NCBI RefSeq assembly: GCF_022370835.2
Contig: NZ_CP092365.1
Location: 1,488,001-1,552,000 of the forward strand
From: Mycolicibacillus parakoreensis
GTDB lineage: Bacteria > Actinomycetota > Actinomycetes > Mycobacteriales > Mycobacteriaceae
Direction: 5' to 3'
DNA length: 64,000 nt
The translations under genes were made by a program, and so were the position numbers. A model generated the notes under the pieces. It saw only the letters and a list, made by a program, of their open reading frames with translations. It did no database searches and was not told the DNA's origin. How positions within the stretch are numbered: position 1 is the first letter of the stretch; the number at the start of each line of letters is the position of its first letter. Positions 37,996 through 63,844 of the stretch are shown piece after piece.

Positions 37996-38323
37996 TGACG
38001 GCCCGTCTTGAGCAGGCGGAACGGCCGCGCGTCATGTCAGCCGGCACGGTGATTCGTGTAGCGGCGACGAACGCGATCGCCCGGATCTGCGGCGGTGAGA
38101 GCACCGCGGGCATCGTCGTCGTGATCCACGCAGGCCATCACCGCGATGTCCACCGGCCATCAGCAAATATGGACGCGTCGCTCCAGGCTGTTCAAGGAAT
38201 TTTTCCATCTGCCCAGCTAACAAAATTGTGTCCGAGGGGGGACTTGTCCGTCTACGACACGGGTCGTGGTCTGGCGATTGGGGCGCTGACCGCTTCGGTC
38301 AAGCACCGGTCCACCTTTTTCGC
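37977..38323. other. Intergenic stretch without recognisable gene
   Basis: These 347 bp lie between convergent genes. Short open frames on both strands show no family resemblance, no ribosome-binding site and poor codon structure. I see no clear terminator hairpin with a T-run. It may be residual sequence at a module boundary. Confidence 0.5.
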
Positions 38324-43659: not shown

Positions 43660-43698
43660 ACCCTGCTGTCGGTTGACTGCCCATGTAGGGCTGGCGCC

Positions 43699-43704
43699 TA
43701 TCCT
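43699..43704 (+). promoter_or_regulatory. -10 element for leaderless tetR
   Basis: TATCCT is followed by 6 nt and then ATG 43711. No Shine-Dalgarno sequence is visible. TTGACT at 43673-43678 could be a poorly spaced -35. Confidence 0.45.
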
Positions 43705-43710
43705 GCTCCT

Positions 43711-46932: not shown

Positions 46933-46962
46933 TATTGTTTCCTCCAAATCCATGACGTTGTT

Positions 46963-48597: not shown

Positions 48598-48647
48598 GGG
48601 GGTGACGCGGACCCCCTAGTCACGCTATGCTAACCGTCGTTCACGTC
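48598..48647 (+). promoter_or_regulatory. Promoter and putative TetR operator of the 48.7-kb operon
   Basis: TATGCTA, 8 bp, TCACGTC (48626-48647) is an imperfect palindrome whose arms match those of the perfect site at 63813-63836 in 5 of 7 positions each. It overlaps a -10 TATGCT. A separate GGGGGT-N7-ACCCCC hairpin (48598-48616) sits just upstream. The rest of the 282-bp gap (48403-48684) holds no recognisable gene. Confidence 0.5.
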
Positions 48648-48684
48648 GGGACCGGCGTTGAACGCGTGGTCGGAAGGAGTCCGG

Positions 48685-49852
48685 ATGCCACACGACCAGC
48701 CGGCCATCATCGGTGCCGCCGAAGTCGCTCCAGGAAGAAACGTTCCGTACACCTCCACTGAATTGCATGTGCGCGCCGCGGTCGCGGCTCTCGCCGACGC
48801 AGGGGTGGTCCCAGACGAGGTCGACGGTCTCGTGTGCGCCGGGCCGATGACGAACGAGGGTTCGATCTTCCTGTCCGAGGACCTCATGGACTATCTCGGG
48901 CTGCACAACCTGAAACTTCAGATGACCTGTCAGCTTGGCGGCGGGACCCATCTGGCCATGACGCGCATGGCGAGTAACGTCATCGCCCGGGGCGAGGCCG
49001 AGACGGTGCTGGTCGTGTCGGCGGGCAAGTTTCCACCGATCCGCGATGGCGGGCGCGAACTGATGGCGCTGGTGTGTGACCACGCGTTCGAGATGCCCTA
49101 CGGACCCTCCGTGCCGGCGCTGTACGGTTTGATCGCGCAGGCCTGGATGCACGAGACGGGACAGGGCAAGGCGGACATCGCCGAGGTCACCGCGTCGCAG
49201 GACCGGTGGGCCGCGCTGAATCCCGCGGCGATCGCGCACCGCTCACAACGCCTGACTGTGGAGGACGTGCTGGCGTCCCGCCCGATCGCCGGGCCGTTCC
49301 ACTTCTACCACTGCTCGATTCCCTGCGAGGGCGGTGGCGCGCTCGTGCTGGGCTCGGCCCGCCGGGCTCGCGCGGGCAAACACCGGCCGGTACACCTGCT
49401 CGGGTTTGGAGAGGGTCACACCCACGGTTTTCTGACCTCGCTGGCCCGCCCGGGTCGTACCGGGGCCGCCCGTTCGGGTCCGATGGCCTTCGAGCGCTCC
49501 GGACGGGCGCCGGCCGACATCGACATCGCCTTGCTCTACGACGCCTTCGCCTCAAACCCGGCGATGATCCTGGAGGAGGCGGGCTTCGTGAAGCCCGGCG
49601 GGGCAGGCGATTTCTACCGTGACGGCCGCGCCGATCCGGGGGGCGACCTTCCGGTGAACACCGACGGCGGCCTGATCCGGTTCGGGCACACCGGGACCTC
49701 CTCTGGCATTTCGCAGATCCTCGAGGGTTATTGGCAGTTGTCCCGGTCGCGCCGAGGGCCGTCAGGTCTTCGGGGCGGACACCGCGTTCGTGCACAGCTA
49801 CGGCTCGATGCTGTGCAGTCACGTCAGCATGGTGATGGAGGGAGCGTCATGA
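48685..49852 (+). CDS. Thiolase/lipid-transfer (aldolase-like) protein with apparent +1 frameshift near its 3' end
   Basis: The protein is thiolase-superfamily: AIIGAAEVAPGR, MTCQLGGGTHLAM (Cys in the usual nucleophile area), HCSIPCEGGGALVL, ALLYDAFASNPAMILEEAGF and LPVNTDGGLIRFGHTG. After EGYWQLS the frame runs into a nonsense tail and through the next gene. One extra C at 49741-49744 explains this. Removing it gives SGRAEGRQVFGADTAFVHSYGSM and on to a TGA at 49850-49852 overlapping the DUF35 ATG. Start ATG 48685 follows GGAAGGAG. The pairing with DUF35 recalls the Ltp2-ChsH2 retro-aldolase of steroid side-chain breakdown. The frameshift may be an assembly error or real. Confidence 0.78.
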
Positions 49853-50286
49853 CCGCAGCTTCGAGTTCCCTCGACGGTCTGCACGATCCTGAGGCGCTGC
49901 CGCCGCTGACCGATGTCAACCGTCCCTACTTCGCAGCAGCGGCCCGCGGCGTACTCGTCTTCCAGCGGTGCGCGAACGGCCACCCGTTCCTCTACCCGCG
50001 GCTGGTGTGTCCCGTCTGCCATGACGGTGAGTTGGCCTGGGAGACCGCGGCGGGTACTGGTGAGATCGTCAGTTTCGCGCCGGTGTACCGCCCCCCGTGG
50101 GACTCGTTCCCGCGCAGCGAGCCGTACGTCGTCGTGCTCGTTCGTCTGGACGAGGGGCCGCAGTTGTTGGCCAGTCTCGAGGGCGTGGCCCCCGATGAAG
50201 TTGCGATCGGCGCAAGAGTGCGCGCAGTGTTCGAGCGGGTGAACGAGGACCTTGGGCTGGTCCGATTCAGGCCGGCGGCGTCGTGA
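49849..50286 (+). CDS. DUF35 OB-fold acyl-CoA-associated protein
   Basis: The protein has 145 residues. A zinc ribbon (CANGHPFLYPRLVCPVC, near residues 45-61) precedes an OB fold with GEIVSFAPVYRPPW, PYVVVLVRLDEGPQLLASLEG and IGARVRAVFERVNEDLGLVRFRP. DUF35 proteins partner thiolase-like enzymes as acyl-CoA-channelling subunits. The ATG overlaps the restored thiolase stop (ATGA), and the end overlaps the LLM start (GTGA). In the present sequence it appears fused to the thiolase frame only because of the upstream frameshift. Confidence 0.85.
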   Translation: MTAASSSLDGLHDPEALPPLTDVNRPYFAAAARGVLVFQRCANGHPFLYPRLVCPVCHDGELAWETAAGTGEIVSFAPVYRPPWDSFPRSEPYVVVLVRLDEGPQLLASLEGVAPDEVAIGARVRAVFERVNEDLGLVRFRPAAS

Positions 50287-51326
50287 GCACGTACGGGGTC
50301 TCGGTGCTCGGCGCGGACTTGGCCACCCTTGTCGAGACCGCCGAGGCTACCGACCTCGCCGGCTTCGACGCCGCCTGGGCCTCGGAGTTCTACTCGCGCT
50401 CCGGCTCGATCTCGATGGCCGCGATGGCCGCGCGCACAAAGCGCTGCCGCATCGGGTCGTCGATCCTGTATGGCGTCGGGCGCAGCCCGCTCGTGCTCGC
50501 CACCGAGGCGCGTGACCTCGACGAGCTTTCAGGCGGGCGCGTCGTGCTCGGGCTCGGCAACGGCACACGCCGCATGATGAGCGACTGGCACGGCGTGGAG
50601 GACACCTCCGCTCCCGCTCTGCGCATGGAGGAGCTGGTCCCGCTCGTGCGTCGGATCTGGAACCTGCACGAGGGCCCCGTGCGCCATGAGGGTCGCTTCT
50701 ATCGGATGAATCTCGTCCCGACCGGCGACGTCGCGCCGCCGCAGCGGGCCATCCCGATCATCACCGCGGGCGTGCGTCCGCGGATGTGCGAGGTGGCAGG
50801 GCGCGTCGCCGACGGGTTGGCCGGTCATCCGCTATTCACCACGACCTACGTCGAGGAGGTCGCCCGCCCAGCCGTCGTGCGCGGTGCGGAGCGGGCCGGA
50901 CGCGATCCCGCCGACATTGAGATCGTCTCGATGGTCATCTGCGCGGTGCACGACGACCCACAGATCGCACGCCGTGAGGCCGCGCAGCAGATCGCGTTCT
51001 ACTCCTCGGTGAAGACCTACGAACACGTTCTCGATGTGAGCGGCTTCGCCAGGCAGGGGGCGGCGATTCGCGACGCGTTCGCGCGGCGTGACCTGCCGGC
51101 CATGTTCGCAGCCGTCACCGACGACATGATCGACGCGATGGCGGTGGCCGGCACCGCCGCCGAGGTCCGAGAAGGGCTGCGCCGCTACGAGGGCGTGCTG
51201 GACCACATCGTTCTCTACTCACCCTCGATCGGCCTCGCGCCCGAGCGCATCGCCGAGAACCTAGGCAGCCTCATTCGCGATTGTGCACCGGCCTTCGCCG
51301 GCGGGAAAGGTGACCAGAGTGGCTGA
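50283..51326 (+). CDS. LLM-class flavin/F420-dependent oxidoreductase
   Basis: The protein has 347 residues of the luciferase-like TIM barrel type. TDLAGFDAAWASEFYSRSGSISMAAMAARTKRCRIGSSI and RDLDELSGGRVVLGLGNGTRRM match F420-dependent LLM proteins common in mycobacteria, with PIITAGVRPRMCEVAGRVADGL later. It probably reduces or oxidises a CoA-linked or carbonyl intermediate. The GTG at 50283 overlaps the DUF35 stop. Confidence 0.85.
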   Translation: MSTYGVSVLGADLATLVETAEATDLAGFDAAWASEFYSRSGSISMAAMAARTKRCRIGSSILYGVGRSPLVLATEARDLDELSGGRVVLGLGNGTRRMMSDWHGVEDTSAPALRMEELVPLVRRIWNLHEGPVRHEGRFYRMNLVPTGDVAPPQRAIPIITAGVRPRMCEVAGRVADGLAGHPLFTTTYVEEVARPAVVRGAERAGRDPADIEIVSMVICAVHDDPQIARREAAQQIAFYSSVKTYEHVLDVSGFARQGAAIRDAFARRDLPAMFAAVTDDMIDAMAVAGTAAEVREGLRRYEGVLDHIVLYSPSIGLAPERIAENLGSLIRDCAPAFAGGKGDQSG

Positions 51327-51777
51327 CGCATCGCTCATCGGGACGCAACTCGGGAGCACCACATTTCCCGTCGACCGGTCCAAAGTGCGCGAGTTCGCGC
51401 TGTCCCTCGACGACCACGACCCGATCTACCAGGACGCCGCAGCGGCCCGCGCCGCCGGCTTCGGCGCGATCCCCGCTCCGCCGACCTTCGTCGTCTCCTC
51501 GGCTCACTGGCGCGCCGACGACGACATGTTCGGCGCCCTCGGGCTCGACCTGCGACGCGTACTGCACGGTGAGTGCGGCTGGGAGTATTTCGCGCCGGTG
51601 GTCGTCGGCGACGAGCTCACCGAGACGCGTCGGGTGTCGAACGTGACCAGCCGCGAGGGCAAGCGCGGCGGCACCATGACAATCGTGACGATCGAGACCG
51701 ACTTCACCAACCAGCGCGACGAACTCGTCGTGCGCCAGACCGACGTCTTGATCGAAACCGGAGGCTCCACCCAATGA
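51319..51777 (+). CDS. FAS1_N/MaoC-type hot-dog protein (likely non-catalytic partner)
   Basis: The protein has 152 residues. KVREFALSLDDHDPIYQDAAAARAAGFGAIPAPPTFVV is the N-terminal MaoC dehydratase-like domain. It lacks the catalytic Asp-x-x-Pro-x-His set, suggesting that it pairs with the next gene product to form an (R)-specific hydratase. GTG 51319 is inside the LLM stop and about 9 nt after GGAAAGG; GTG 51310 is also possible. Confidence 0.78.
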   Translation: MADASLIGTQLGSTTFPVDRSKVREFALSLDDHDPIYQDAAAARAAGFGAIPAPPTFVVSSAHWRADDDMFGALGLDLRRVLHGECGWEYFAPVVVGDELTETRRVSNVTSREGKRGGTMTIVTIETDFTNQRDELVVRQTDVLIETGGSTQ

Positions 51778-52199
51778 CGACATCCCCCGCGCCGGTGGCG
51801 TTGGCCGCCGGCGACGAGATGCCGAGCTCACAGTTCGGCCCGCTGACGCGCTCGCACATCGTCCGCTACGCCGGGTCCGGCGGCGACTTCAACCCGATCC
51901 ACCATGACGAGGAGTTCGCCCGCGCGGCCGGCATGCCCGGTGTGTTCGGTATGGGACTGCTGCACGGCGGTGTGCTCGCCCAGCGGCTGACCGCCTGGGT
52001 GGGGCTGGCCAACATCCGCTCGTTCCGCATCCGGTTCACCGGTCAGGTATGGCCCGGTGACCTGCTCAGCTTCGGCGGCAGGGTCACCGGCGTGCGCGAG
52101 GCCGGAGGGCAGCAGGTGGCAGACCTCGAACTCGTGGTCACGCGCCAGTCCGGCGAACCCGCGATAAAGGGGAGCGCCGTCGTGCAGGTGGCCCGGTGA
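51774..52199 (+). CDS. MaoC-like enoyl-CoA hydratase (catalytic hot-dog)
   Basis: The protein has 141 residues. YAGSGGDFNPIHHDEEFARAAGMPG carries the full hydratase-2 signature with catalytic Asp and His. GMGLLHGGVLAQRL follows. It hydrates trans-2-enoyl-CoA to (R)-3-hydroxyacyl-CoA. Start and end overlap neighbouring genes by 4 bp (ATGA, GTGA). It is probably a heteromer with the upstream hot-dog protein. Confidence 0.85.
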   Translation: MTTSPAPVALAAGDEMPSSQFGPLTRSHIVRYAGSGGDFNPIHHDEEFARAAGMPGVFGMGLLHGGVLAQRLTAWVGLANIRSFRIRFTGQVWPGDLLSFGGRVTGVREAGGQQVADLELVVTRQSGEPAIKGSAVVQVAR

Positions 52200-52723
52200 G
52201 CGCGCCAACGAGCGACGTCACCGGCCTCGGGATGACATTCGGGACCTTCGACGAAGGCCGGGCGTGGGTCGGTCATCGCTCCGAACCGCGGCGTGCGTGG
52301 TTCCCGATCGACCGCTCGATGGTGTTGTACTACTGCTCGCTCGTCGAGGACGCGAACCCCCGTTACTGGGAGGGTGAGGACTGCCCGCCCGGGCTGCTGA
52401 TGAGCCTCGGCTTCGCGCCGCAGTGGGTGCCCGGGTACCTAGCGCGTGCCGACATGATGTTCGCGCTCAGCGTCCCGTTGCCGGGCCACCACATCATCAA
52501 CGCCTCGACGACGACGGAGTTCGAACGCCGGCCCCGGGTAGGCGATCACGTGTCGATCGTGGAGGAGATCGCCTCGATCTCCGAGCCGAAGACGACGCGG
52601 GTGGGCACCGGCGTGTTCATCACCACGGTGAGTACGTTCTCCGACCAGCACGGTGAGGTCCTCGGCCGCAACACCAACGTGCTCTTCCGATACGACACCG
52701 CCGATAGTGAAGGCGCATCATGA
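52196..52723 (+). CDS. FAS1_N-like hot-dog protein (second non-catalytic partner)
   Basis: The protein has 175 residues. WFPIDRSMVLYYCSLVEDANPRYWEG and the CPPGLLMSLGFAPQWVPGY segment match MaoC N-terminal-like domains without the catalytic dyad. It is longer than the other hot-dog proteins here. GTG 52196 overlaps the upstream stop, and the end overlaps the next gene (ATGA). Confidence 0.72.
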   Translation: MSAPTSDVTGLGMTFGTFDEGRAWVGHRSEPRRAWFPIDRSMVLYYCSLVEDANPRYWEGEDCPPGLLMSLGFAPQWVPGYLARADMMFALSVPLPGHHIINASTTTEFERRPRVGDHVSIVEEIASISEPKTTRVGTGVFITTVSTFSDQHGEVLGRNTNVLFRYDTADSEGAS

Positions 52724-53190
52724 ACGGATCCACCGAGCACAGCATGGTCCGCTTCCCCGTGCGGTTCGAGGACATCGCCGTCGGCGACACCCTGACGCCC
52801 GTCTCGATCGAGATCAGCTACAAGCGCATCTGCATGAACGCGGCTTCGACATGGGACTGGTTCCCCGGTCACCACGACCCCGACTACGCGCGCAGCCAGG
52901 GCCAGCGCACAATCTACCTGTCAACCCTCTTCTTCCATGGCTTCATCGACCGCGGCCTCAACGAATGGGCCGGACCCGACGCGCTCATCCGGCGCCGCAG
53001 AATCTCAATGATCCGGTCGATCTACCCGGGCCAGACCGCGACCCTGAGCGGCAAGGTCGTGGCCAAACGCGACGATGGCGGACGGCGCCTCGTCGACCTC
53101 GAGTTGCTCGTCTCGAGCGAAGATGGTCCGTGCGTGCCGAGTGAAGCCACCGTTGAGCTGGCCGACCCGTTTGTCGAGGTGCCGGGGTGA
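52720..53190 (+). CDS. MaoC-like dehydratase (second catalytic hot-dog)
   Basis: The protein has 156 residues. TWDWFPGHHDPDYARSQGQRTIYLSTLFFHGFIDR has the D-x-x-P-x-H arrangement of MaoC active sites. The C-terminal strand region is IYPGQTATLSGKVVAKRD. With the preceding gene it forms a second non-catalytic/catalytic pair. Its substrate probably differs from that of the first pair. Confidence 0.78.
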   Translation: MNGSTEHSMVRFPVRFEDIAVGDTLTPVSIEISYKRICMNAASTWDWFPGHHDPDYARSQGQRTIYLSTLFFHGFIDRGLNEWAGPDALIRRRRISMIRSIYPGQTATLSGKVVAKRDDGGRRLVDLELLVSSEDGPCVPSEATVELADPFVEVPG

Positions 53191-53233
53191 ACTGCCACTC
53201 ACATGCGAGACGACGGTGAGGGACGGAGGCTCG

Positions 53234-54001
53234 GTGGCCGAGCAACCGATTCGCTACGAGGTCGTCGACAGCGTGGCCTGGCTGACGATCAACCGGCCCG
53301 AGGCGCGCAACGCGCTGAACAACGCTGTGCGCACGGGGCTTATCGACGCGGTACTCCGCTTCAATGACGACGACGCGGCGAAGGTGCTCGTCCTCACCGG
53401 CGTGGGCGATAAGGCGTTCTGCGCCGGCGGGGACTTGAAGGAGATGGCGCAGAACGCGCTCAAGGTGCCCCCGAAGGACTTCGCTCCGCAGTTCGGCCGC
53501 AACATCGATGTCGCGAAGCCGACGATCGCGGCCGTCAACGGTGTCGCGTTCGCCGGGGGCTTCCTGCTCGCGCAGCAGTGCGACCTGGTCGTGGCCGCCG
53601 AACACGCGACCTTCGCCGTCAGCGAGGTCAAGGTCGGCCGCGGTTCGCCGTGGGCGACACCCCTGTCGTGGCTGGTGCCCCCGCGCGTTGCCATGCAAAT
53701 CCTGCTGACCGGCGACCCGATCACCGCCGCGCGCGCCCACCAGGTCGGCTTGGTCAATGAGGTGGTGCCGGCCGATCAGTTACGCGAGCGTACCCAGCAG
53801 TTGGCGCTCAGCATCGCCGCGAACGCACCGCTGTCCGTGCTCGCGTCCAAGCGCACCGTGTACCTCTCGGCGCAGCACCACCTCGCCGCCGCGTACGACC
53901 TGGCCGACGAGATATGGGAGCCGGTCTATCTGAGCGACGACGCGCAGGAAGGCCCGGCGGCGTTCCGCGAGAAGCGCGCGCCGCAGTGGAAGGGACACTG
54001 A
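53234..54001 (+). CDS. Enoyl-CoA hydratase/isomerase (crotonase family)
   Basis: The protein has 255 residues. The oxyanion hole is FCAGGDLKEM and GVAFAGGFLLAQQCDLVVA. The first catalytic Glu position is kept in FAVSEVKVG. The second, usually Glu in the AMEMVLTGD helix, is Gln here (AMQILLTGD). Loss of one Glu suggests a hydratase with altered chemistry, an isomerase or a hydrolase. GTG 53234 is preceded by GGAGG at 4-5 nt. It follows the hot-dog genes by 43 bp. Confidence 0.85.
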   Translation: MAEQPIRYEVVDSVAWLTINRPEARNALNNAVRTGLIDAVLRFNDDDAAKVLVLTGVGDKAFCAGGDLKEMAQNALKVPPKDFAPQFGRNIDVAKPTIAAVNGVAFAGGFLLAQQCDLVVAAEHATFAVSEVKVGRGSPWATPLSWLVPPRVAMQILLTGDPITAARAHQVGLVNEVVPADQLRERTQQLALSIAANAPLSVLASKRTVYLSAQHHLAAAYDLADEIWEPVYLSDDAQEGPAAFREKRAPQWKGH

Positions 54002-54002
54002 C

Positions 54003-54815
54003 ATGGCGGTGAGCATGCAGTCGGTTATCACCGACATCGAAGCGGAGACGGCAGCCCTACGCGGATTGGTCGCGCCGCTGACCGAAGGTCCGCGCGGCTG
54101 GGACGCGCCGACTCCGGCCGTGGGCTGGACGATCCGCGACCAGATCAGCCATCTGGCGTTCTTCGACGACGTCGCGGTGCGCTCGGCCACCGACCCCGAC
54201 GGGTTCAGCAGCGACTACCTGCCGATGATGGCCGACGGAGCCATCTCACCCGACGTCATCGCCGAGCGCTACCGTCAAATGCCGGCTGCCGACCTGCTCG
54301 CGTGGTTCGACACGTCGCGTGCCGCCCTCGTTGCGGCGTTCGCGGACATTGACCCGGCGACCCGCCTGCCGTGGTTCGGGCCGCCGATGAGCGCGGTCTC
54401 GTCGCTGACAGCGCGACTCATGGAGACCTGGGCGCACGGCCAGGACGTCGTCGACGCGCTCGGCGCGACCCGCGAGGCCACGGCACGGCTGCGTCACGTG
54501 GCCCACATCGGGGTGGGTGCACGCGCGTTCAGCTACCTGGCCAACGGTCTGGACCTGCCCGCGGACCCGGTACGCGTTGAGCTGACCGCTCCGGACGGCA
54601 GCGTCTGGACGTGGGGGCCAGCCGACGCGGCCAACCGCGTGAGCGGGCCGGCGCTCGACTTTTGCCTGTTGGTCACCCAACGCCGCCACCGCGACGACAC
54701 CGCTTTGGTCGCCGACGGCCCGCTGGCCGACCAGTGGCTCGCGATCGCCCAGGCCTTCGCGGGGCCCCCTGGCGGCGGGCGCGTGGCGGGCCAGTTTGCA
54801 GGGCGTCAGCGGTGA
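54003..54815 (+). CDS. TIGR03084-like protein (DinB/maleylpyruvate isomerase fold)
   Basis: The protein has 270 residues. The N-terminal four-helix bundle has GWTIRDQISHLAFFDD and METWAHGQDV, which supply His/Asp-type metal ligands as in mycothiol-dependent isomerases. The C-terminal part carries VELTAPDGSVWTWGP, an SCP2-like strand region. I recall that TIGR03084 proteins are usually encoded near AtuA/DUF1446 genes in actinobacteria, as here. The stop overlaps the atuA-like GTG start. A thiol-dependent step is possible but unproven. Confidence 0.78.
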   Translation: MAVSMQSVITDIEAETAALRGLVAPLTEGPRGWDAPTPAVGWTIRDQISHLAFFDDVAVRSATDPDGFSSDYLPMMADGAISPDVIAERYRQMPAADLLAWFDTSRAALVAAFADIDPATRLPWFGPPMSAVSSLTARLMETWAHGQDVVDALGATREATARLRHVAHIGVGARAFSYLANGLDLPADPVRVELTAPDGSVWTWGPADAANRVSGPALDFCLLVTQRRHRDDTALVADGPLADQWLAIAQAFAGPPGGGRVAGQFAGRQR

Positions 54816-56537
54816 GCGTCCCGGTCCGCATCGGCAACTGCTCCGGCTTTTACGGCGACCGCATCGCCGCAGCCCGCGAGATGGTCGAGGGCGGACCGAT
54901 CGACGTCCTGTGCGGTGACTATCTGGCCGAGCTGACCATGCTCATCCTGGCCAAGGCCCAGGCCAAAGACCCGTCCGGCGGGTACGCGCGGACTTTCCTC
55001 ACCCAAATGGAACAGGTGCTGGGCACCTGTCTCGATCATGGCATCAAGGTCGTCGCGAACGCGGGCGGGCTGAATCCCGCCGGCTTGGCCGCCGCGTTGC
55101 GCGAGCTGTCCGCCCGTCTCGGCCTCACCGCGCGCGTCGCTCACGTCGAGGGCGACGACCTACGTGGCGACCTCCACGCAATCACGCCGCCCGTCGGCGA
55201 CATCAAACCGGTATCGGCCAACGCGTACCTCGGCGCCTGGGGCATCACCGAGGCGCTGCGTTCGGGCGCCGACGTCGTCGTGACCGGCCGGGTCACCGAC
55301 GCATCCCTGGTCGTCGGTCCAGCCGCCTGGTGGCACGCCTGGGCACCCGCCGACTGGGATCGGCTCGCGGGCGCGGTCGTCGCCGGGCACGTGATCGAGT
55401 GCGGCCCTCAGGCGACGGGCGGCAACTACGCGTTCCTGGACGAGATCACGGACCGCCGCTACCCGGGGTTTCCGATCGCCGAGGTCGCCGAGGACGGCTC
55501 TTCGGTGATCACGAAGCATCCCGGCACCGGGGGACTGGTCTCAGTCGGCACGGTCACCGCCCAGCTGCTCTACGAGACCGCTGAACCTGCCTACCTCGGC
55601 CCCGACGTCGTCGCCCACTTCGACACCATCCGGCTGGCTCAACAGGGTGAGCACCGCGTCGCGATCAGCGGTACGAAAGGCAGTCCGCCGCCGGACACGT
55701 TGAAGGTGGCGTTGAATGAGGTGGGCGGCTTCCGTAACACAATGACCATGGTGCTCACCGGCCTCGACATCGGGGCCAAGGCGGCTTTCGCCGAACAGCA
55801 GCTCTTCGACGTTCTCGGCGGACGCGACGCCTTCGACGAAGTCGACGTGAGGCTGTTGCGTTTCGACGTCTCCGACGCACCGACGAACGAGCAAGCCTGC
55901 GCGCACCTGCGTGTGACGGTGAAGGACGCCGACCCGCGCAAGGTGGGCCGAGCCTTCTCCGGGGGGGGTCATGGAGATCGCCCTGGCTGGTTTCGCCGGC
56001 TTCCACACCACCACGCCACCGTCCTCGGAGACCGCCTTCGGCGTCTACCGGCCGGCCTACGTAGCGCGGTCGGCCCTCACGCACGTACTCGTCGACGCCG
56101 ACGGCACACGGCACGAGATCCCCGACCCGCCGACCGGTGCCGTCCCGCCGGCTAGGATCGCCGCGCTCGCGAAGCTGCCAGTGCCGTCCGGGCCGACACG
56201 TCGCGCGCCGCTCGGGTCGGTACTCGGCGCGCGGTCCGGAGACAAGGGCGGCAACGCTAACCTCGGCCTGTGGGCACGGGATGACCCTGGGTACGCGTGG
56301 GCGCGTGACTACCTCAGCGTCGAGCGGCTGCGCACTCTGCTCGGGCCGGAGACGGCGCACCTGCCCATGGAGCGCTTCGAACTGCCGAACCTGCGCGCCC
56401 TCAACGTGGTGGTGCACGGCTTGCTCGGTGACGGGGTGGCCTCCTCGACCCGGCTGGACGCACAGGCCAAGGGGCTCGGGGAATACGTGCGGTCCCGCAT
56501 GGTGGACATTCCCCAGTCGCTGCTCGACACACACTAA
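54812..56537 (+). CDS. AtuA-like (DUF1446) protein with apparent +1 frameshift at a G8 run
   Basis: The first part (GTG 54812 on) reads RIGNCSGFYGDRIAAAREMVEGGPIDVLCGDYLAELTM and other acyclic-terpene-utilisation family stretches: GGLNPAGLA, VVTGRVTDASLVVGPAAWW and HVIECGPQATGGNY. At 55961-55968 a run of eight G shifts the frame. With seven G it reads RAFSGGVMEIALAGFAGFHTTTPP and continues to the TAA at 56537, including GVYRPAYVARS and LGARSGDKGGNANLGLWARD. The total would be about 575 residues, normal for the family. AtuA is needed for citronellol/geraniol-type degradation in pseudomonads; its reaction is not settled. Two conserved C-terminal pieces are thus split in this sequence. Confidence 0.82.
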
Positions 56538-57127
56538 ATCCGGTGCGGGGCGCCGTCTACCTGCTGTGTAACCGCGCGGCTGAACAGCGCCGCAACGGCC
56601 GCGGCGGCCAGCATCGCCTCAATCGTCGCGTCGTCCAGCGACGCCGGCATGTACGCGGACGCGTTGAGCAATGACAGCACGGCGGCGACCAGGCCCTGTG
56701 CGCGCTCACGGTCCAGATCGCCCCGTGCTCGTACGAGTGCCTCGACCCAAAAGGACTCGTAGCTGTGCTGTCGGCGTCGCAGGGCACGGGTCGCCAGCGG
56801 CGACAGCGAGCGGTGCTCGCGGGCGTAGACGGCCAACAGGCCGCGTCGTCGCGCGCCGAAGGCCGCGTGCAGGTCGACAAGGGCGTGCAGGACCTCCGTC
56901 GGTGTGCCGGCCGTGGTGGCGCGCCGGGCGCCGGCCAGCAGCTCAGTCATGGCGGCGTCGCATAACTCGCGAAGGATCGCGTCCTTGTTCTGAAAGTGCC
57001 GGTAGACGGCCGGCCCGCTCACCCCTGCTGCGGCACCGATGTCGTCGATGCCCACGGCGTGAAAGCCTTGCCGCGCGAACAGGTCGGCGGCGGCCTCGAG
57101 GAGCAGTTTGCGGCGCAAACCGGCCAC
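56534..57127 (-). CDS. TetR-family regulator at the meeting point of the two operons
   Basis: The protein has 197 residues. The helix-turn-helix is VGIDDIGAAAGVSGPAVYRHFQNKDAIL, a sub-type common in repressors of fatty-acid or branched-chain catabolism. GTG 57127 follows AGGAGG by 7 nt; the 57229 start lacks one. It ends overlapping the atuA stop by 4 bp (tail to tail) and lies 213 bp downstream of the acyl-CoA ligase gene. It probably controls both operons through the TGATGTTA-type palindromes. Confidence 0.85.
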   Translation of the reverse strand: MAGLRRKLLLEAAADLFARQGFHAVGIDDIGAAAGVSGPAVYRHFQNKDAILRELCDAAMTELLAGARRATTAGTPTEVLHALVDLHAAFGARRRGLLAVYAREHRSLSPLATRALRRRQHSYESFWVEALVRARGDLDRERAQGLVAAVLSLLNASAYMPASLDDATIEAMLAAAAVAALFSRAVTQQVDGAPHRI

Positions 57128-57340
57128 TTTCAGGCCTCCTGTCGATTTGTGGTTACGTTGTTCGCCGTCCGATCCGCTGGGCTGGGATCCTACCGACGCT
57201 GGGGTTGCCTGCGTCGGCACCCGCCGCACCGAATCGAGGGAGGTGAACGAAACCGCTAGCCCCCGCCGATGCTGTCGATCCTTTTCTCAGTTCATGATTT
57301 AGGGGCCCTGCTCCGAACCCGCGATGTGCAGCGGCACGAC

Positions 57341-58894
57341 TCAGCGCAAAACGACTCCGCCCTCGATGCCCGTGAACTGCGCGCGCAGCTCGGTCTTGAG
57401 CAGCTTGCCGGTGGCGTTGCGCGGCAGTTCGGCGACGAAGTGCACGTCACGCGGACACTTGAAGTGTGCCAGCCGCTCCCGGCACCACGCCACGATCTCC
57501 TCGGCGCTCGGCGCCTGCGTCGCCGGGTCGGCAACCACGACCGCGACGACGCGTTCGCCCCACTTCGCGTCCTTACCGCCGATCACGGCGGCGTCGAACA
57601 CCGCCGGGTGGCGGAAGAGGACCTGCTCGACCTCGATCGGGTAGACGTTCTCGCCGCCGGAGATGATCATGTCCTTCTTGCGGTCGACGAGGGTGATGAA
57701 GCCCTCCGCGTCCATGCGCCCGAGATCGCCCGTGTGGAACCAGCCCCCGCGCAACGCCTCGGCGCTCGAATCGGCCTTCATCCAGTAGCCGGTGAACACA
57801 TTCGGACCGCGCACGATCAGTTCGCCCACGGTGTCGGTCGCGACGTCGCGGTCGTCGTCGTCGACGATGCGGGCGTCGACATGCATCGCGACGCGGCCGA
57901 TCGACCCGGCCCGCGTGCTGATGTTCTCGGCGTCGAGGACGGTCACCAGGGGAGCGGTCTCGGTCATGCCGAAGCCCTCGGTGAAGGGCACGCCTCGCTC
58001 GCGCATGAAGTCGATGACCGTGAGGGGGACGGGCGACCCGCCGCCCATGGCGAAACGCAGCGCAGACAGGTTGAAGGAGTCGAAGTCGGACACCTGTGTG
58101 AGAGCGGTCCACATGGCCGGCACCATGAACTGAACCGTGACGTGGTGGTCGGCCATCGCCTGCAGCGTAGCTCGCGGCTCGAAGGACGGCATGATGACGC
58201 TGGTGCCGCCGACGTAGAGCAGCGGCAGGGTGTGTACTCCCAGCCCGCCGATGTGGAACAACGGCGCCACCGCGACGGTGACGTCCTCGCCCCGCAGGCC
58301 GATGTCGGTGCCGAGGACGTTGATCGCGTTCCATAGCAGGTTGTCGTGGGTGAGGATCGCGCCCTTGGGTCGGCCCGTCGTCCCCGACGTGTACATGATG
58401 AACGCGGGGTCGCTGCCGTCGACGTCACCGTTGAGCGGTTCGGGCGCGGCGCCCGAGACGACGTCTTCGTAGCCGAGCTCGCCCGGCGCCGGCGCCCCAC
58501 CGGCGCGTACGACATGGCGCACGCGGACTCCGGACTCGGTGACGGCGCTCTTGGCCTGCGCGGCGAACGGCTCGTGGAAGACCAGAACATCGGCGCCTGA
58601 GTCGGCCAGGATGTAGCCGATCTCGGGTCCGGCAAGGCGCACGTTGAGCGGAACTGCAAGTGCGCCGATTTTGGCGCAGCCCAGCAGCACCTGGATGAAC
58701 TCGGTCGAATTGACCAGCAGCATCGCGACCCGATCGCCCTTGCGCACGCCGAGGGCGATGAGTGCGGCGGCGACCTGGTTGGTGCGCCGATCGAGGTCGG
58801 CGTAGGTGATGTGCGCGCCGTTGCTGATCAACGCGGTGCGCCCGCCGTTGAGGAAGGCGCGCCGGGTCACCCACTGACCGATGCCGAGTTGCAT
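57341..58894 (-). CDS. Acyl-CoA ligase (fatty-acid--CoA ligase family)
   Basis: This is an ANL-superfamily adenylating enzyme of 517 residues. P-loop YTSGTTGRPKGAILTH, A4-like FNLSALRFAMGGGSPVP, GFGMTETAPLV, the hinge DLGRMDAEGFITLVDRKKDMIISGGENVYPIEVE and the catalytic Lys in RNATGKLLKTEL are present. It activates the entry carboxylic acid with ATP and CoA. ATG 58894 follows GGAAAGGGA; the 59020 start overlaps the dehydrogenase gene and is rejected. Confidence 0.9.
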   Translation of the reverse strand: MQLGIGQWVTRRAFLNGGRTALISNGAHITYADLDRRTNQVAAALIALGVRKGDRVAMLLVNSTEFIQVLLGCAKIGALAVPLNVRLAGPEIGYILADSGADVLVFHEPFAAQAKSAVTESGVRVRHVVRAGGAPAPGELGYEDVVSGAAPEPLNGDVDGSDPAFIMYTSGTTGRPKGAILTHDNLLWNAINVLGTDIGLRGEDVTVAVAPLFHIGGLGVHTLPLLYVGGTSVIMPSFEPRATLQAMADHHVTVQFMVPAMWTALTQVSDFDSFNLSALRFAMGGGSPVPLTVIDFMRERGVPFTEGFGMTETAPLVTVLDAENISTRAGSIGRVAMHVDARIVDDDDRDVATDTVGELIVRGPNVFTGYWMKADSSAEALRGGWFHTGDLGRMDAEGFITLVDRKKDMIISGGENVYPIEVEQVLFRHPAVFDAAVIGGKDAKWGERVVAVVVADPATQAPSAEEIVAWCRERLAHFKCPRDVHFVAELPRNATGKLLKTELRAQFTGIEGGVVLR

Positions 58895-58920
58895 GCGATT
58901 CCCTTTCCGTCCGCGGCGAC

Positions 58921-60075
58921 TCAGTAGGACGCGGGCAGTTTCAGGCTGTGCTGCGCCACGAAGTTGAGGATCATTTCGCGGCTGATCGGCGCGGTGCGCA
59001 TGAGCCGGGCCGGACCCCACAACGTGGCGAGGCCGTACTCGGTGGCCATGCCGTTGCCGCCGTGGGTCTGAATCGCCTGGTCGAGCGCCAGGATGCCCGC
59101 CTCGGCTGCGGCATATTTCGCCATGTTCGACGCCTCACCCGACCCCGGATCGCCGGCGTCGTGCAGGGCGGCGGCACGCTGGGTCATCAACCGGGCCAGC
59201 TCGACCTGGATCTTGGCGTGGGCGAGGGGGTGCGATACGCCCTGGTGCGAGCCGATCGGCGCTCCCCACACGTGGCGGTTGCGGGCGTAATCGGCGGCTT
59301 TATCCAGCGCGTAACGGCCGATGCCGTTGCCGAGCGCTGCCCCCATGATTCGCTCCGGGTTCAGGCCCATGAAGACCTGGCGCAGGCCCTCGTTCTCCGT
59401 GCCGATAAGGTTGGCGGCCGGCACGCGGACGTCATCGAAGAATAGAGTGAACTGCTTCTCTGGAGTGACCGCCTGGACCGGGATGAGTGACTTGGTGAGC
59501 CCGGGGACATCGGTGGGCACGACGAGCAGGCTGAGTAGTCCGCGACCACTGTCGTTGGTAGACGTTCGGGTGACGACCAGGATCGCTTCGGCTTCGTCGA
59601 CACCGGAGATGTAGTACTTGGTGCCGTTGATGACCCAGTCGTCGCCGTCGCGTTTCGCGGTCGTGGAGATGTTGTGCGAGTTCGAGCCCGCGTCCGGCTC
59701 GGTGATTGCGAATGCCATGATCGTCTCGCCGCTGGCGATGCCCGGCAGCCACTGCTGCTTGAGTTCCTCACTGCCGAATGCCTGGATGATCGTGCCGCAG
59801 ATGGTTGGCGAGACGACGGTCATCAGCAGCGGGCAGCCCGCCGCGGCGAGCTCCTCACCGACGATCTGCATGTCGTAGATGCCGCCGCCGCCGCCGCCGT
59901 ACTGCTCGGAAAGGTTCACCCCGAGGAAGCCCTGTTTGCCCACGGCCTGCCACAGCTCGGTGCTCTTCGCGCCGGCCAGCGATTTTTCCAGGTAGTACTC
60001 GTGTCCGAAGTCCTTGGCGATCTCGGCGACCGCCTTGCGCAGGTCCTGACGTTCCTCTGTCTCGTGCAATTCCAT
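58921..60075 (-). CDS. Acyl-CoA dehydrogenase
   Basis: The protein has 384 residues. FAITEPDAGSNSHN is the FAD/substrate signature 1, YYISGVDEAEAILVV follows, and QTHGGNGMATEYGLATLWGPARLMRTAPISREMILNFVA is the C-terminal signature. The catalytic Glu is not in the usual GYxxEYPVE position, so it belongs to a branch that places it elsewhere or uses another base. ATG 60075 is preceded by GAGGAG; the 60087 start is rejected. It introduces the alpha-beta double bond needed before carboxylation. Confidence 0.88.
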   Translation of the reverse strand: MELHETEERQDLRKAVAEIAKDFGHEYYLEKSLAGAKSTELWQAVGKQGFLGVNLSEQYGGGGGGIYDMQIVGEELAAAGCPLLMTVVSPTICGTIIQAFGSEELKQQWLPGIASGETIMAFAITEPDAGSNSHNISTTAKRDGDDWVINGTKYYISGVDEAEAILVVTRTSTNDSGRGLLSLLVVPTDVPGLTKSLIPVQAVTPEKQFTLFFDDVRVPAANLIGTENEGLRQVFMGLNPERIMGAALGNGIGRYALDKAADYARNRHVWGAPIGSHQGVSHPLAHAKIQVELARLMTQRAAALHDAGDPGSGEASNMAKYAAAEAGILALDQAIQTHGGNGMATEYGLATLWGPARLMRTAPISREMILNFVAQHSLKLPASY

Positions 60076-60129
60076 GACACTCCTCACATCGGTATCGACG
60101 CGCCACCGATCGGGAGCGCGCCGGGTTCA

Positions 60130-62169
60130 TTAGAGCTCGGTGGCGTCCGACGCCACTTCACCGCCGTCCACCGCCTCGACCACGGCGAGGACGTCACCGC
60201 TCGAGACCTGATGGCCGACCTGGACCGGCAGGGCGCTCAGCACCCCGTCGATCGGGCTCGCGACGGTGTGCTCCATCTTCATCGCCTCCAGGACGACAAG
60301 GGTTTGGCCCGCCGAGACCGTCTCGCCCTCGGCGACCGGTAGTCGGATCACCGAGCCCGGCATCGGCGCGGTGAGCGACCCGGGCGGGTTGAGAGTGCTC
60401 GGGTCGACGAAGCGTGGCGCCAGCCGCAGGGCGGAGTAGCCGGCGACCGAGTCGAGGTGGGCAACATCGCCGTCGAGGACGACATCATAAGTGCGGCGCA
60501 CCCCGTCGACGCGCAGCACCACCCGCTCGCTACTGCCCTCGACAACCTCGACGTCGGCCAACGGCTCGTCGTCGACCTGCAGGCAGGTCCCTGTCGAACC
60601 TAACGTGTACCCGACGCGCACTTCGCGCCCACCCTGGGTCTGCCAGGTCGTGGTCTGCGGCTGCGAAGGGTTGTTGCGCCAGCCGGCGGGCAACGTGGCC
60701 TGCAGAGTTGCGACGGCACGCCGCGCGGCCACCCCGGCCACGGTCGCCGCGACGGCGTGCAGGCGCTCGGACTGCGTGTCTGGGAGGGCAGCGCCGAGTT
60801 GGGCGACGTCGTGTCGGTCAAGGAACCCAGTGTCGGTGCCCCGCCCGGCGAACTCGTCATGGCGCAGGACGCGAACAAGCAGGTTGCGATTGGTGGTCAC
60901 GCCGTGAATACGGGCGCCGGCCAGCGCCGCCGAGAGGCTGGCAAGTGCCTCGTCGCGCGTTGGTGCCCACGCGATGACCTTGGCCAGCAGCGAATCGTAG
61001 TAATGACTGATGACCGAACCGGCACGAAAACCCGAGTCAACCCGCACGCCGGCAAGCGCCGGGACATCCAAGGTGCGCAGGGTGCCGGTACAGGGCCGGT
61101 AGTCATCGGCCGGATCCTCGGCGCACAGACGGGCCTCGACCGCGTGACCGCGAATTCGCGGGTTGTGCATCTCCTCAGGCAGCGGGCGGCCCATGGCTAC
61201 GAGCAGCTGGGCACGCACCAGGTCGAGGCCGGTGATCAGCTCGGTAACCGGGTGCTCGACCTGCAGCCGGGTGTTCATCTCGAGGAAGGCGAAGGAGTCG
61301 GCTTTGCCATCCTGAGCGGCGTCGTAGACGAACTCGACCGTCCCGGCGCCTACGTAGCCGACGGCGCGCGCGGCGGCGATGGCGGCCTCGCTCATCCGAG
61401 CGCGCAACGCGTCGTCGACGACCGGTGACGGCGCCTCCTCGATCACCTTCTGGTGTCGACGCTGCACGGAGCACTCGCGCTCGAACAGAGAGACGACGTT
61501 TCCGTGCGTGTCGGCCATGATCTGGATCTCGACGTGGCGTGGGCGCTGGACGTAACGCTCGAGGAAGACGGTGCCGTCGGCGAACGCGGCGGCGGCCTCA
61601 CGCGAAGCGGAGGTGACCGCTTCGTCGAGCTCGTCCGGCGACGCGACAATGCGCATGCCTCGGCCACCGCCGCCGGCGCTGGCCTTGACCAGCACGGGGT
61701 AGCCGACGTCGGCGGCCAGCTTCGCCAGCTGCTCGGCCGATAGCCCCGTCGTGTCGCCACCGGGCAGCACAGGCACCCCCGCGTCGGACATCGTCTTCTT
61801 GGCCTGCAGCTTCGAGCCCATCGCGTCGATCGCCCCGGGCGGCGGACCGATGAAGACGAGGTCGGCGGCGGCACAGGCGCGCGCGAACCCGGCGTTTTCC
61901 GAAAGGAAGCCGTAGCCGGGGTGTACTGCGTCCGCGCCGGTGAGCGAGGCAGCGGCGATGATCCGGTGGATGTCGAGGTAGGTCTCAGCGGCAGACGAGC
62001 CGGGAAGGTGCACGGCCTCGTCGGCGTCGGCGACGTGCCACGCGTCGGCGTCGGCGTCGGAATAGACCGCGACGGTGGCGATGCCGAGATCGCGGCAAGT
62101 GCGGAACACCCGCCGCGCGATCTCGCCACGGTTGGCGACCAGGACCTTGCGGATCTTGGGCATCGCCAT
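60130..62169 (-). CDS. Acyl-CoA carboxylase alpha subunit (biotin carboxylase-BCCP)
   Basis: The protein has about 679 residues. The biotin carboxylase domain opens KVLVANRGEIARRVFRTCRDLGI. The ATP-grasp glycine loop is KASAGGGGRGMRIV, with ECSVQRRHQKVIEEAPSP and FLEMNTRLQVEHPVTEL. The C-terminal BCCP has EAMKMEHTV with the biotinyl Lys near residue 630. The size and layout match MCC/GCC/AtuF-type alpha subunits. ATG 62169 overlaps the beta-subunit stop (TGATG); GTG 62172 is the alternative. Confidence 0.92.
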   Translation of the reverse strand: MAMPKIRKVLVANRGEIARRVFRTCRDLGIATVAVYSDADADAWHVADADEAVHLPGSSAAETYLDIHRIIAAASLTGADAVHPGYGFLSENAGFARACAAADLVFIGPPPGAIDAMGSKLQAKKTMSDAGVPVLPGGDTTGLSAEQLAKLAADVGYPVLVKASAGGGGRGMRIVASPDELDEAVTSASREAAAAFADGTVFLERYVQRPRHVEIQIMADTHGNVVSLFERECSVQRRHQKVIEEAPSPVVDDALRARMSEAAIAAARAVGYVGAGTVEFVYDAAQDGKADSFAFLEMNTRLQVEHPVTELITGLDLVRAQLLVAMGRPLPEEMHNPRIRGHAVEARLCAEDPADDYRPCTGTLRTLDVPALAGVRVDSGFRAGSVISHYYDSLLAKVIAWAPTRDEALASLSAALAGARIHGVTTNRNLLVRVLRHDEFAGRGTDTGFLDRHDVAQLGAALPDTQSERLHAVAATVAGVAARRAVATLQATLPAGWRNNPSQPQTTTWQTQGGREVRVGYTLGSTGTCLQVDDEPLADVEVVEGSSERVVLRVDGVRRTYDVVLDGDVAHLDSVAGYSALRLAPRFVDPSTLNPPGSLTAPMPGSVIRLPVAEGETVSAGQTLVVLEAMKMEHTVASPIDGVLSALPVQVGHQVSSGDVLAVVEAVDGGEVASDATEL

Positions 62170-63770
62170 CACATCCGGAACACGCCGTAGCCACGCTGGC
62201 CACGGACCTCGCCGTTGTGGATCACCGACAGGCAGAACCCGAGAACGGTCCGCGTATCGCGGGGATCGATGATCCCGTCGTCGTAAAGTCGGCCGCTGTT
62301 GGCCAGTGCGACGGATTCGCGCTCGATCTGTTCCTCGACGGCGGCGCGCATCTGGGCGTCGGCCTCCTCGTCGAAGGGCAGCCCGCGGTCGGCGGCGGAC
62401 TCGCGCGCCACGATGGACAGCACTCCGGCCAGTTGCGCCGGACCCATCACGGCCGACTTCGAGTTAGGCCAAGCGAATAGGAAACGCGGCGAGTACGATC
62501 GCCCGCACATGCCGTAGTTCCCGGCACCGTAGGACGCACCCATGGTGATGGTCACGTGGGGGACCGTGCTGTTGGATACGGCGTTGATCATCTTGGCGCC
62601 GTCCTTGATGATGCCGCCCTGTTCGTACTCGGCACCGACCATGAAACCGGTGGTGTTCTGCAGGAAGATGAGGGGGGTGTCGATCTGATTTGCCAGTTGG
62701 ATGAACTGCGAACCTTTCTCGGCCTCCTCACTGAACAGGATGCCCCGTGCGTTGGCGAGGATGCCGACTGGGAAGCCGTGGATCGAGGCCCAGCCGGTGA
62801 CGAGTGACGTGCCGTAGAGAGGTTTGAACTCGTCGAAGGCCGAGCCGTCGACCACTCGGGCGATGACGTCGCGGGGGTCGAAGGGCACCTTCGGATCGAC
62901 CGACGCGATGCCGAGCAGCTGATCGGGGTCGTGCACCGGTGGGTGCGGCGGCGTGGTGGGTCCGGGGCCGTTCTTCCGCCAGTTGAGCCGCGCCATGATG
63001 CGACGGCCGATGCGGATCGCATCCTGCTCGTCCTCGGCCATGTAATCGGCCAGCCCCGAGGTGCGGGCGTGCATGTCGGCGCCGCCGAGCGACTCGTCAT
63101 CGGAGACCTCGCCCGTGGCCATCTTGACCAGCGGCGGACCCCCGAGGAACACCTTGGAACGGTTGCGAACCATCACGACGTAGTCGCACATGCCCGGGAC
63201 GTACGCACCTCCAGCGGTGGAGTTGCCGAAGACCAAGGCCAGTGTCGGCAGCCCCGCTGCGCTGTGCTGTGTCAAGTCGTGGAACAGCTGTCCGCCGGGC
63301 ACGAAGATGTCTGCCTGTGTGGGCAGGTCGGCGCCGCCAGACTCGACGATGTTGATGATGGGCAGTCGGTTCTCCCGCGCGATGGCCATGCCGCGGAACA
63401 CCTTGCGGAAGGTATAGGGGTTCGATGCGCCGCCGCGGACGGTGGGGTCGTGGGCGATGATCATCGACTCGATGCCCTCGACTACGCCGATGCCGACCAC
63501 CACGCTACCGCCGACGGGGAACTTACTGCCCCAGGCGGCGAAGGGACATAGTTCGAGGAACGCCGTGTCGGGGTCGAGCATCAGCTCGATGCGCTCGCGG
63601 ACGAGCAGCTTGCCCCGCTTGCGGTGGCGCGCAACGTATTTCGCGCCTCCGCCGCCGTTGACCAGCGCCAGTTGCTCCACGATGGTGTGGAGTTGCGCGC
63701 TCAGTCCTTCGCGGTTCTTGAGATACCCGGGCGCGGTGTCGTCGACCCGGTCGGGCAAGACCTGTACCAA
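62169..63770 (-). CDS. Acyl-CoA carboxylase beta subunit (carboxyltransferase, MCC/GCC-like)
   Basis: The protein has 533 residues. The crotonase-fold carboxyltransferase has VESGGADLPTQADIFVPGG, NSTAGGAYVPGM and FLGGPPLVKMATGE in the N-domain. The C-domain has GILANARGILFSEEAEKGSQFIQLANQIDTPLIFLQNTTGFMVG and MGASYGAGNYGMCGRSY, which is typical of MCC/geranyl-CoA carboxylase subunits rather than propionyl-CoA ones. The start is TTG 63770 with GGAGGG 6 nt upstream. It is the first gene of the minus-strand operon. Substrate choice cannot be read from the sequence alone. Confidence 0.9.
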   Translation of the reverse strand: MVQVLPDRVDDTAPGYLKNREGLSAQLHTIVEQLALVNGGGGAKYVARHRKRGKLLVRERIELMLDPDTAFLELCPFAAWGSKFPVGGSVVVGIGVVEGIESMIIAHDPTVRGGASNPYTFRKVFRGMAIARENRLPIINIVESGGADLPTQADIFVPGGQLFHDLTQHSAAGLPTLALVFGNSTAGGAYVPGMCDYVVMVRNRSKVFLGGPPLVKMATGEVSDDESLGGADMHARTSGLADYMAEDEQDAIRIGRRIMARLNWRKNGPGPTTPPHPPVHDPDQLLGIASVDPKVPFDPRDVIARVVDGSAFDEFKPLYGTSLVTGWASIHGFPVGILANARGILFSEEAEKGSQFIQLANQIDTPLIFLQNTTGFMVGAEYEQGGIIKDGAKMINAVSNSTVPHVTITMGASYGAGNYGMCGRSYSPRFLFAWPNSKSAVMGPAQLAGVLSIVARESAADRGLPFDEEADAQMRAAVEEQIERESVALANSGRLYDDGIIDPRDTRTVLGFCLSVIHNGEVRGQRGYGVFRM

Positions 63771-63812
63771 AATTTTCCCTCCGGGCGAGCATCGACGTCA
63801 TCTGCTAGGCGC

Positions 63813-63844
63813 TGATGTTAGCCGCAATTAACATCAGGTGACAA
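63813..63844 (-). promoter_or_regulatory. Perfect palindromic operator over the carboxylase promoter
   Basis: TGATGTTA, 8 bp, TAACATCA (63813-63836) is a perfect 8-bp-arm palindrome. On the minus strand TTGTCA (63844-63839) is a -35 and TAACAT inside the palindrome a -10, 18 bp apart. Bound TetR would block this promoter. The remaining sequence to 64000 holds no gene; a GAAGCGC/GCGCTTC inverted repeat lies near 63894-63921. Confidence 0.75.

What the first reader, a model, noticed from the sequence alone, without database searches (positions are those of the whole stretch)
48626..63836. Two convergent operons encode a possibly undescribed acyl-CoA carboxylation/aldol route
The plus-strand operon (48.7-56.5 kb) combines a thiolase/aldolase-like protein with a DUF35 partner, an LLM flavoenzyme, four hot-dog hydratase proteins, a crotonase, a TIGR03084 protein and an AtuA-like protein. 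The minus-strand operon (56.5-63.8 kb) supplies acyl-CoA ligase, acyl-CoA dehydrogenase and both subunits of an MCC/GCC-type carboxylase. Together they look like an Atu/Liu-type pathway, but no HMG-CoA-lyase-like gene is present. A retro-aldol step by the thiolase-DUF35 pair, as in steroid side-chain cleavage, could replace it. I do not know a described pathway with this exact set. Substrate candidates are terpenoid or other branched acids.
Basis: partly seen in the sequence, partly recalled or inferred. Interest (0 to 1): 0.72.

Follow-up and report, generated by a model that had tools for sequence, protein, structure and literature searches.

The report
Mobile island for branched-hydrocarbon degradation

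The parts
38227..38246 (.). left 20-bp direct repeat (attL-like); its partner lies 52,776 bp to the right, at L087:9003, overlapping the 3' end of a tRNA-Leu gene
   Evidence: exact repeat; tRNA; identity to G022/G182/G100 begins at 38221/38227/38201
38937..40079 (-). zinc alcohol dehydrogenase (island cargo)
   Evidence: Pfam ADH_N, ADH_zinc_N
44348..45547 (-). ferredoxin reductase of the P450 operon
   Evidence: Pfam/NCBIfam
45544..46953 (-). CYP153-type cytochrome P450 (alkane hydroxylase type)
   Evidence: PDB sequence search: CYP153A7 454 bits, 'Cytochrome P450 alkane hydroxylase' 8b2p 692 bits; NBB4 orthologue called CYP153 in PMC8784404
46963..47283 (-). 2Fe-2S ferredoxin
   Evidence: translation; NBB4 annotation
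47398..48402 (+). AraC-family regulator
   Evidence: Pfam/NCBIfam (CypR model 92 bits, below its cut-off)
48658..50286 (+). thiolase-like (aldolase-like) gene, frameshifted near its 3' end so that it runs into the DUF35 frame
   Evidence: Pfam Thiolase_C_1; frame comparison; residues
49849..50286 (+). DUF35 (zf-ChsH2/OB_ChsH2) partner; a separate gene in NBB4; start inferred from NBB4
   Evidence: Pfam; NBB4 annotation
50283..51326 (+). LLM-class flavin/F420 oxidoreductase
51319..51777 (+). MaoC/hot-dog 1 (no D..P..H motif in the NBB4 copy); start inferred from NBB4
51774..52199 (+). MaoC/hot-dog 2 (motif DFNPIHH); start inferred from NBB4
52196..52723 (+). MaoC/hot-dog 3 (no D..P..H motif in the NBB4 copy)
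52720..53190 (+). MaoC/hot-dog 4 (motif DWFPGHH)
53234..54001 (+). crotonase, proposed glutaconyl-CoA-type hydratase (AtuE role); start inferred from NBB4
54003..54815 (+). TIGR03084 (MDMPI/DinB-type) protein, role unknown
   Evidence: NCBIfam 365 bits, cut-off 248
54812..56537 (+). AtuA, frameshifted: N-terminal part in the frame of 54812-56155, C-terminal part in the frame of 55971-56537; proposed acetate lyase
   Evidence: Pfam AtuA 497 bits; frames; fold of an intact relative
56534..57229 (-). TetR regulator (SACE_7040-like, below that model's cut-off)
57341..58894 (-). acyl-CoA ligase; start inferred from NBB4
58921..60087 (-). acyl-CoA dehydrogenase (subtype that also accompanies the aldolase module elsewhere)
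60130..62172 (-). biotin carboxylase/BCCP subunit with BT_MCC_alpha domain
62169..63770 (-). carboxyltransferase subunit with GCC-type active-site segment

Best explanation
The two operons are cargo of an actinobacterial integrative mobile element that joins three modules. (1) A CYP153 operon probably makes the first oxidation of a hydrocarbon (inferred). (2) An Atu-type core handles a beta-alkyl-branched acyl-CoA: ligase, acyl-CoA dehydrogenase, GCC-type carboxylase acting on the gamma carbon, crotonase hydrating to a 3-hydroxy-3-alkylglutaryl-CoA, and AtuA cutting this into acetate + 3-oxoacyl-CoA (role of AtuA inferred from family and fold). (3) A separate FadE + MaoC pair + thiolase-like/DUF35 module works like steroid side-chain cleavage: dehydrogenate, hydrate at a tertiary carbon, retro-aldol to a ketone + short acyl-CoA (inferred from residues and linkage). 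Shown here by sequence: the gene set, the island, the GCC marks, the loss of the thiolase nucleophile, the fold match of AtuA. Not shown: any activity, substrate or transfer. In this window AtuA and the thiolase-like gene are frameshifted, so this copy may be impaired.
Against: AtuA has only 15-17% identity to the citramalate lyase, a profile search of PDB sequences gave E 0.016 only, and a shared fold does not prove function; PMC4097962 gives the lyase step to LiuE. AtuA-family proteins at E<=1e-100 occur in 193 of 198 genomes of the genus, so AtuA is not specific to this pathway. AtuA frames are broken in 4 of the island copies looked at (window, G022, G100, G146). The aldolase-like protein has neither Ltp2's second Tyr nor Sal's Cys. 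Two clades (G065, G124; and L056) link CYP153 with ECH-TIGR03084-AtuA without the aldolase module; G065 and G124 also have no carboxylase in the 36-40 kb read.
Confidence: 0.55

Rival explanations
1. One reading: the thiolase-like/DUF35 pair is the retro-aldolase that splits the 3-hydroxy-3-alkylglutaryl-CoA in place of an HMG-CoA lyase.
For: Aldolase-type residues; the module sits with carboxylase genes and AtuA in three further arrangements: G002 and G185 (AtuA 2.5-4 kb away), G090 (carboxylase ~8 kb, AtuA ~27 kb away) and Amycolatopsis L023.
Against: 38 of 41 non-island AtuA loci of at least 20 kb have no thiolase hit of at least 30% and 39 of 41 no DUF35 hit, so the carboxylase core usually works without it; it also occurs apart from the core (G176, G024); host lyase in 15 of 15 genomes; AtuA has a lyase fold.
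Confidence: 0.15
2. The lyase step is done by the host's chromosomal HMG-CoA-lyase-like enzyme (LiuE model), and AtuA has another role.
For: Present above cut-off in 15 of 15 genomes searched, but in only 3 of 14 control genomes; LiuE assigned in PMC4097962.
Against: Lies 1.27 Mb away here and not in any of 83 AtuA loci; does not explain why AtuA accompanies the carboxylase in 33 of 41 loci.
Confidence: 0.25
3. Two unrelated catabolic cassettes merely lie together on a mobile element; there is no joint pathway.
For: Modules occur apart (L056, G065, G124, G176, G024).
Against: Recurring association of FadE + aldolase module with carboxylase genes in diverged arrangements.
Confidence: 0.25

Closest known systems
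Acyclic terpene utilization (Atu) cluster of Pseudomonas and Thauera linaloolentis
   Same: AtuA family, GCC-type carboxylase pair, crotonase, acyl-CoA dehydrogenase, ligase, TetR; lyase assignment split between AtuA (PMC4847356) and LiuE (PMC4097962)
   Different: CYP153 operon, TIGR03084, LLM, four MaoC proteins, thiolase-like/DUF35; on a mobile element in mycobacteria; no AtuB/AtuG-type dehydrogenase among the genes of 48.6-63.8 kb
Steroid side-chain aldolase systems ChsH1-ChsH2-Ltp2 and Shy-Sal
   Same: thiolase fold without nucleophilic Cys, DUF35 partner, MaoC hydratases (PMC12329534 passages)
   Different: motif YDAF instead of YDHF or YDCY; second catalytic residue different; DUF35 not attached to a MaoC domain; linked to a biotin carboxylase
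AtuA-family citramalate lyase CmlA/CmlB (PDB 9erq, 9evf)
   Different: 15-17% identity; one 574-residue chain where the PDB entry has two subunits; substrate presumably a CoA ester (inferred)
Mycobacterial AccA2-AccD2 carboxylase
   Same: MCC-related carboxylase of mycobacteria with unknown substrate (PMC4347857 passages)
   Different: not compared at sequence level here; called different from MCC in that paper by the same active-site segment
Actinomycete integrative and conjugative elements (pSAM2 type)
   Same: RepSA, FtsK-like protein, integrase gene at a tRNA-overlapping repeat
   Different: serine recombinase; about 50 kb of hydrocarbon-catabolic cargo

Membership tests
Geranyl-CoA carboxylase beta subunit | lacks the 3-residue insertion of MCC-beta before Phe191 (PMC4673880) | tested here: met
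   alignment to MCC-beta shows a 3-residue gap exactly there; criterion from passages
Geranyl-CoA carboxylase beta subunit | Phe191 of MCC replaced by Gly | tested here: met
   no Phe at that place; the gap falls on it or, shifted by a few columns, it pairs with Gly (exact column depends on gap placement)
Geranyl-CoA carboxylase | carboxylates geranyl-CoA | not testable with these tools
   enzyme assay needed
3-Methylcrotonyl-CoA carboxylase (Liu) | Phe191 with its 3-residue insertion | tested here: not met
   although MCC-beta 3u9r is the best-scoring PDB chain (542 bits; GCC-beta 5ikl 467)
Atu cluster | AtuA family protein beside carboxylase, acyl-CoA dehydrogenase and crotonase genes | tested here: met
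Atu cluster | growth on citronellol or geraniol | not testable with these tools
   culture needed
SCP2/DUF35 thiolases | nucleophilic Cys | tested here: not met
   Gly at that place against thiolase 6esq
Ltp2/Sal steroid aldolases | Tyr base in the YDxF/Y motif and no nucleophilic Cys | tested here: met
Ltp2/Sal steroid aldolases | second catalytic residue: Tyr344 (Ltp2) or Cys304 (Sal) | tested here: not met
   His at the Tyr344/Gln352 place, Ala at the Cys304 place; so it is not filed as a member, only as working alike
AtuA-family citramalate lyase | fold | tested here: met
AtuA-family citramalate lyase | active-site residues | tested here: inconclusive
   profile alignment E 0.016; GG and GR..D segments align, active site of 9evf not examined
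Actinomycete integrative and conjugative element | integrase, FtsK-like transfer protein, Rep, att repeats at a tRNA gene | tested here: met
Actinomycete integrative and conjugative element | excision and transfer | not testable with these tools
   only indirect: near-identical copies in four assemblies and M. lehmannii

The most novel reading that the evidence does not exclude
AtuA is the acetate-releasing lyase for carboxylated beta-branched acyl-CoAs, and the FadE-MaoC-thiolase-like/DUF35 module is a general retro-aldolase route for tertiary 3-hydroxyacyl-CoAs, for example (1-hydroxycycloalkyl)acetyl-CoA to cycloalkanone + acetyl-CoA (EC 4.1.3.35, which by recall has no gene assigned). The three Baeyer-Villiger-type flavoenzymes and the hydrolase further along the same island would open the resulting ketone ring. 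The island would then be a transferable kit for alkylated alicyclic hydrocarbons or cyclic terpenoids.
Probability: 0.2. Interest if true: 0.78.

Novelty: new variant of a known kind. Interest (0 to 1): 0.6.

Why it matters
It points to a testable enzyme for a disputed step: the lyase of the Atu pathway has been given to LiuE in one source and to AtuA in another, and the AtuA fold now speaks for AtuA. It also offers candidate genes for retro-aldol removal of side chains from tertiary carbons outside steroid catabolism, and shows that such a pathway travels between mycobacterial species on an integrative element.

Tried and rejected
Reading the 542-aa protein as a natural thiolase-DUF35 fusion: rejected as the ancestral state, since NBB4 and the other island copies outside the G000/G022/G182/G100 group have two genes. 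Sequencing error as the cause of the thiolase frameshift: unlikely, as four assemblies share it; for AtuA it remains possible, because its G run has a different length in each of five near-identical copies (window, G022, G182, G100, L005). Carboxylase as MCC of leucine breakdown: rejected on the active-site segment. AtuA as a rare marker: rejected, 193 of 198 genomes of the genus have one at E<=1e-100. PDB sequence search with one AtuA: nothing relevant. A wider search for the thiolase-like protein over 394 genomes of the class at E<=1e-95 found 2, own included. Papers on TIGR03084: none held. Papers on the citramalate lyase structure 9evf: not found. Papers on an integrative element with alkane genes in mycobacteria: nothing to the point among the 12 listed. 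Papers on cyclohexaneacetic-acid genes: 3 listed; the passages seen in 2 gave no gene for its breakdown. M. tuberculosis Rv0971c-Rv0976c as the same kind of cluster is recalled and was not tested.

The AccD count of 52 includes the 6 island copies and L098 and only hits covering both anchor motifs. Of 10 non-island thiolase-like places, the second copy in G100 was not read.
Full report
Observation. Next to them, at 44.3-48.4 kb, lie a ferredoxin reductase, a P450, a ferredoxin and an AraC regulator. The P450 is of CYP153 type (CYP153A7 454 bits, 8b2p alkane hydroxylase 692 bits), and the NBB4 orthologue region is described as the CYP153 cluster in PMC8784404 (passages; locus tags match).

Mobile island. 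G+C is 0.68-0.74 at 1-36 kb and 0.61-0.69 at 36-64 kb in 4-kb steps, 0.58-0.65 from 64 to 92 kb and 0.675-0.73 beyond. A 20-bp direct repeat lies at 38227 and 52,776 bp to its right, where it overlaps the 3' end of a tRNA-Leu gene. Beside the right repeat are a large serine recombinase, a pSAM2-type RepSA protein and an FtsK/SpoIIIE protein. From the left repeat rightwards the DNA is 99.8-99.99% identical to three other assemblies, G022, G182 and G100; 19 kb is 99.96% identical to M. lehmannii and 96-98% to five further Mycobacterium or Mycolicibacterium records. NBB4 plasmid pMYCCH.01 matches 46-64 kb at 95.8%. Of 198 same-genus genomes, own included, 11 hold the LLM-MaoC segment at 93-100%. 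The genus is inferred to be Mycobacterium.

Broken genes. The thiolase-like gene is frameshifted in the window, G022, G182 and G100, and not in L005-L008, L015, L027, NBB4 or G146. AtuA is broken in the window, G022 and G100 and in pieces in G146, and has a full open frame in G182, L005-L008, L015, L027 and NBB4 and in G037, G047, G088, G121, G189 and G192. Intact relatives were used for all tests of function.

Carboxylase. The best PDB match is MCC-beta (542 bits), ahead of GCC-beta 5ikl (467 bits), but the MCC-specific 3-residue insertion and Phe191 are missing. By the criteria of PMC4673880 (passages) this is GCC type, so a substrate larger than 3-methylcrotonyl-CoA is expected. In 41 of 52 AtuA-linked carboxyltransferases, island copies included, the segment has the same short length; 11 have longer ones.

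Is the set conserved? Among 41 AtuA loci of at least 20 kb outside the island, 33 have both carboxylase subunits, 26 TIGR03084, 23 a crotonase of at least 60%, 17 an acyl-CoA dehydrogenase of at least 55%; 3 have a thiolase hit and 2 a DUF35 hit of at least 30%. So the carboxylase-crotonase-TIGR03084-AtuA core is old and widespread, and the thiolase-like/DUF35/LLM/MaoC cassette is an addition. In a Nocardiaceae MAG (L056) and in G065 and G124, the CYP153-AraC genes sit beside ECH-TIGR03084-AtuA without the cassette.

The aldolase-like module. The thiolase-like protein has Gly where thiolase 6esq has its nucleophilic Cys, and YDAF where Ltp2 has YDHF and Sal YDCY. In intact homologues L023 (Amycolatopsis tucumanensis), L098 and L100 the same YDAF, GG and FGHTG/FGHSG motifs recur; L010 has YDCF and is another type. 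Orthologues at E<=1e-70 are in 20 of 198 genomes (21 places). Of ten non-island places, nine were read: an acyl-CoA dehydrogenase of 82-89% lies within 8 kb in eight, MaoC 3+4 in seven. In G002 and G185 AtuA is 2.5-4 kb away and carboxylase genes of 75-92% lie in the same run; in G090 the carboxylase genes are near and AtuA 27 kb away; in G176 and G024 the module is on a different contig from the AtuA-carboxylase core; in G165, G062 and G120 a remote AtuA relative (33%) is adjacent; G018 has DUF35 only. In the NBB4 copies MaoC 2 and 4 carry a D..P..H motif, 1 and 3 do not, which suggests two hydratase pairs with one active member each (inferred; motif recalled).

The lyase premise. The own genome has an HMG-CoA-lyase-like gene (287 bits, cut-off 246) 1.27 Mb away. 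The same family is above cut-off in 15 of 15 genomes searched, 11 of them island carriers, against 3 of 14 controls. None was found in 80 AtuA loci and 3 further loci, nor in 122 kb around and including the island.

Substrate. CYP153 acts on alkanes, and a CYP153 mutant of Dietzia CN-3 grew poorly on the branched alkane pristane (PMC12472514 passages). Further along the island are an SDR, three flavoenzymes with the long Baeyer-Villiger fingerprint, a hydrolase, a second P450, a ligase and two acyl-CoA dehydrogenases (fingerprint recalled). This fits branched alkanes, terpenoids or alkylcycloalkanes; cyclohexaneacetic acid builds up as a product from even-chain alkylcyclohexanes in several bacteria (PMC10837267 passages). 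The recalled Arthrobacter CA1 route (cyclohexylideneacetyl-CoA, 1-hydroxycyclohexylacetyl-CoA, cyclohexanone) would need exactly a FadE, a hydratase and a retro-aldolase; this is a hypothesis. PMC4591350 lists EC 4.1.3.35 under cyclohexanone and 'unknown' for cyclohexaneacetic acid (passages).

Verdict. A real, mobile, Atu-type catabolic island: new variant of a known kind. The most interesting points are AtuA as probable acetate lyase and the recurring aldolase-like module; the idea that the latter replaces a missing lyase is not needed and not favoured.

Noticed in passing
window 55950-55975 (AtuA): A G run in atuA has a different length in each of five near-identical island copies (window, G022, G182, G100, L005); two of the five keep the frame. 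Slippage, possibly phase variation, or assembly noise.
   Followed up: partly
window 35983-37976: FMO-like monooxygenase next to an EthR-like TetR regulator, just outside the island on the host side.
   Followed up: no
L086:6467-12087 (right of the window): Three Baeyer-Villiger-type flavoenzymes and an alpha/beta hydrolase on the same island.
   Followed up: partly
L086:17193-18248: BtrH_N/DUF4872 protein among the catabolic genes of the island, role unclear.
   Followed up: no
window 40034-41539: Thiolase-like protein with the TLP1 additional C-terminal domain, at the left end of the island.
   Followed up: no
L085:21682-22656: An IS481-family transposase gene sits between the AtuA and TetR genes in the NBB4 copy.
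   Followed up: no
window 40700-44318: This left part of the island is also on a Mycolicibacterium aubagnense plasmid at 87% identity, without the rest.
   Followed up: no
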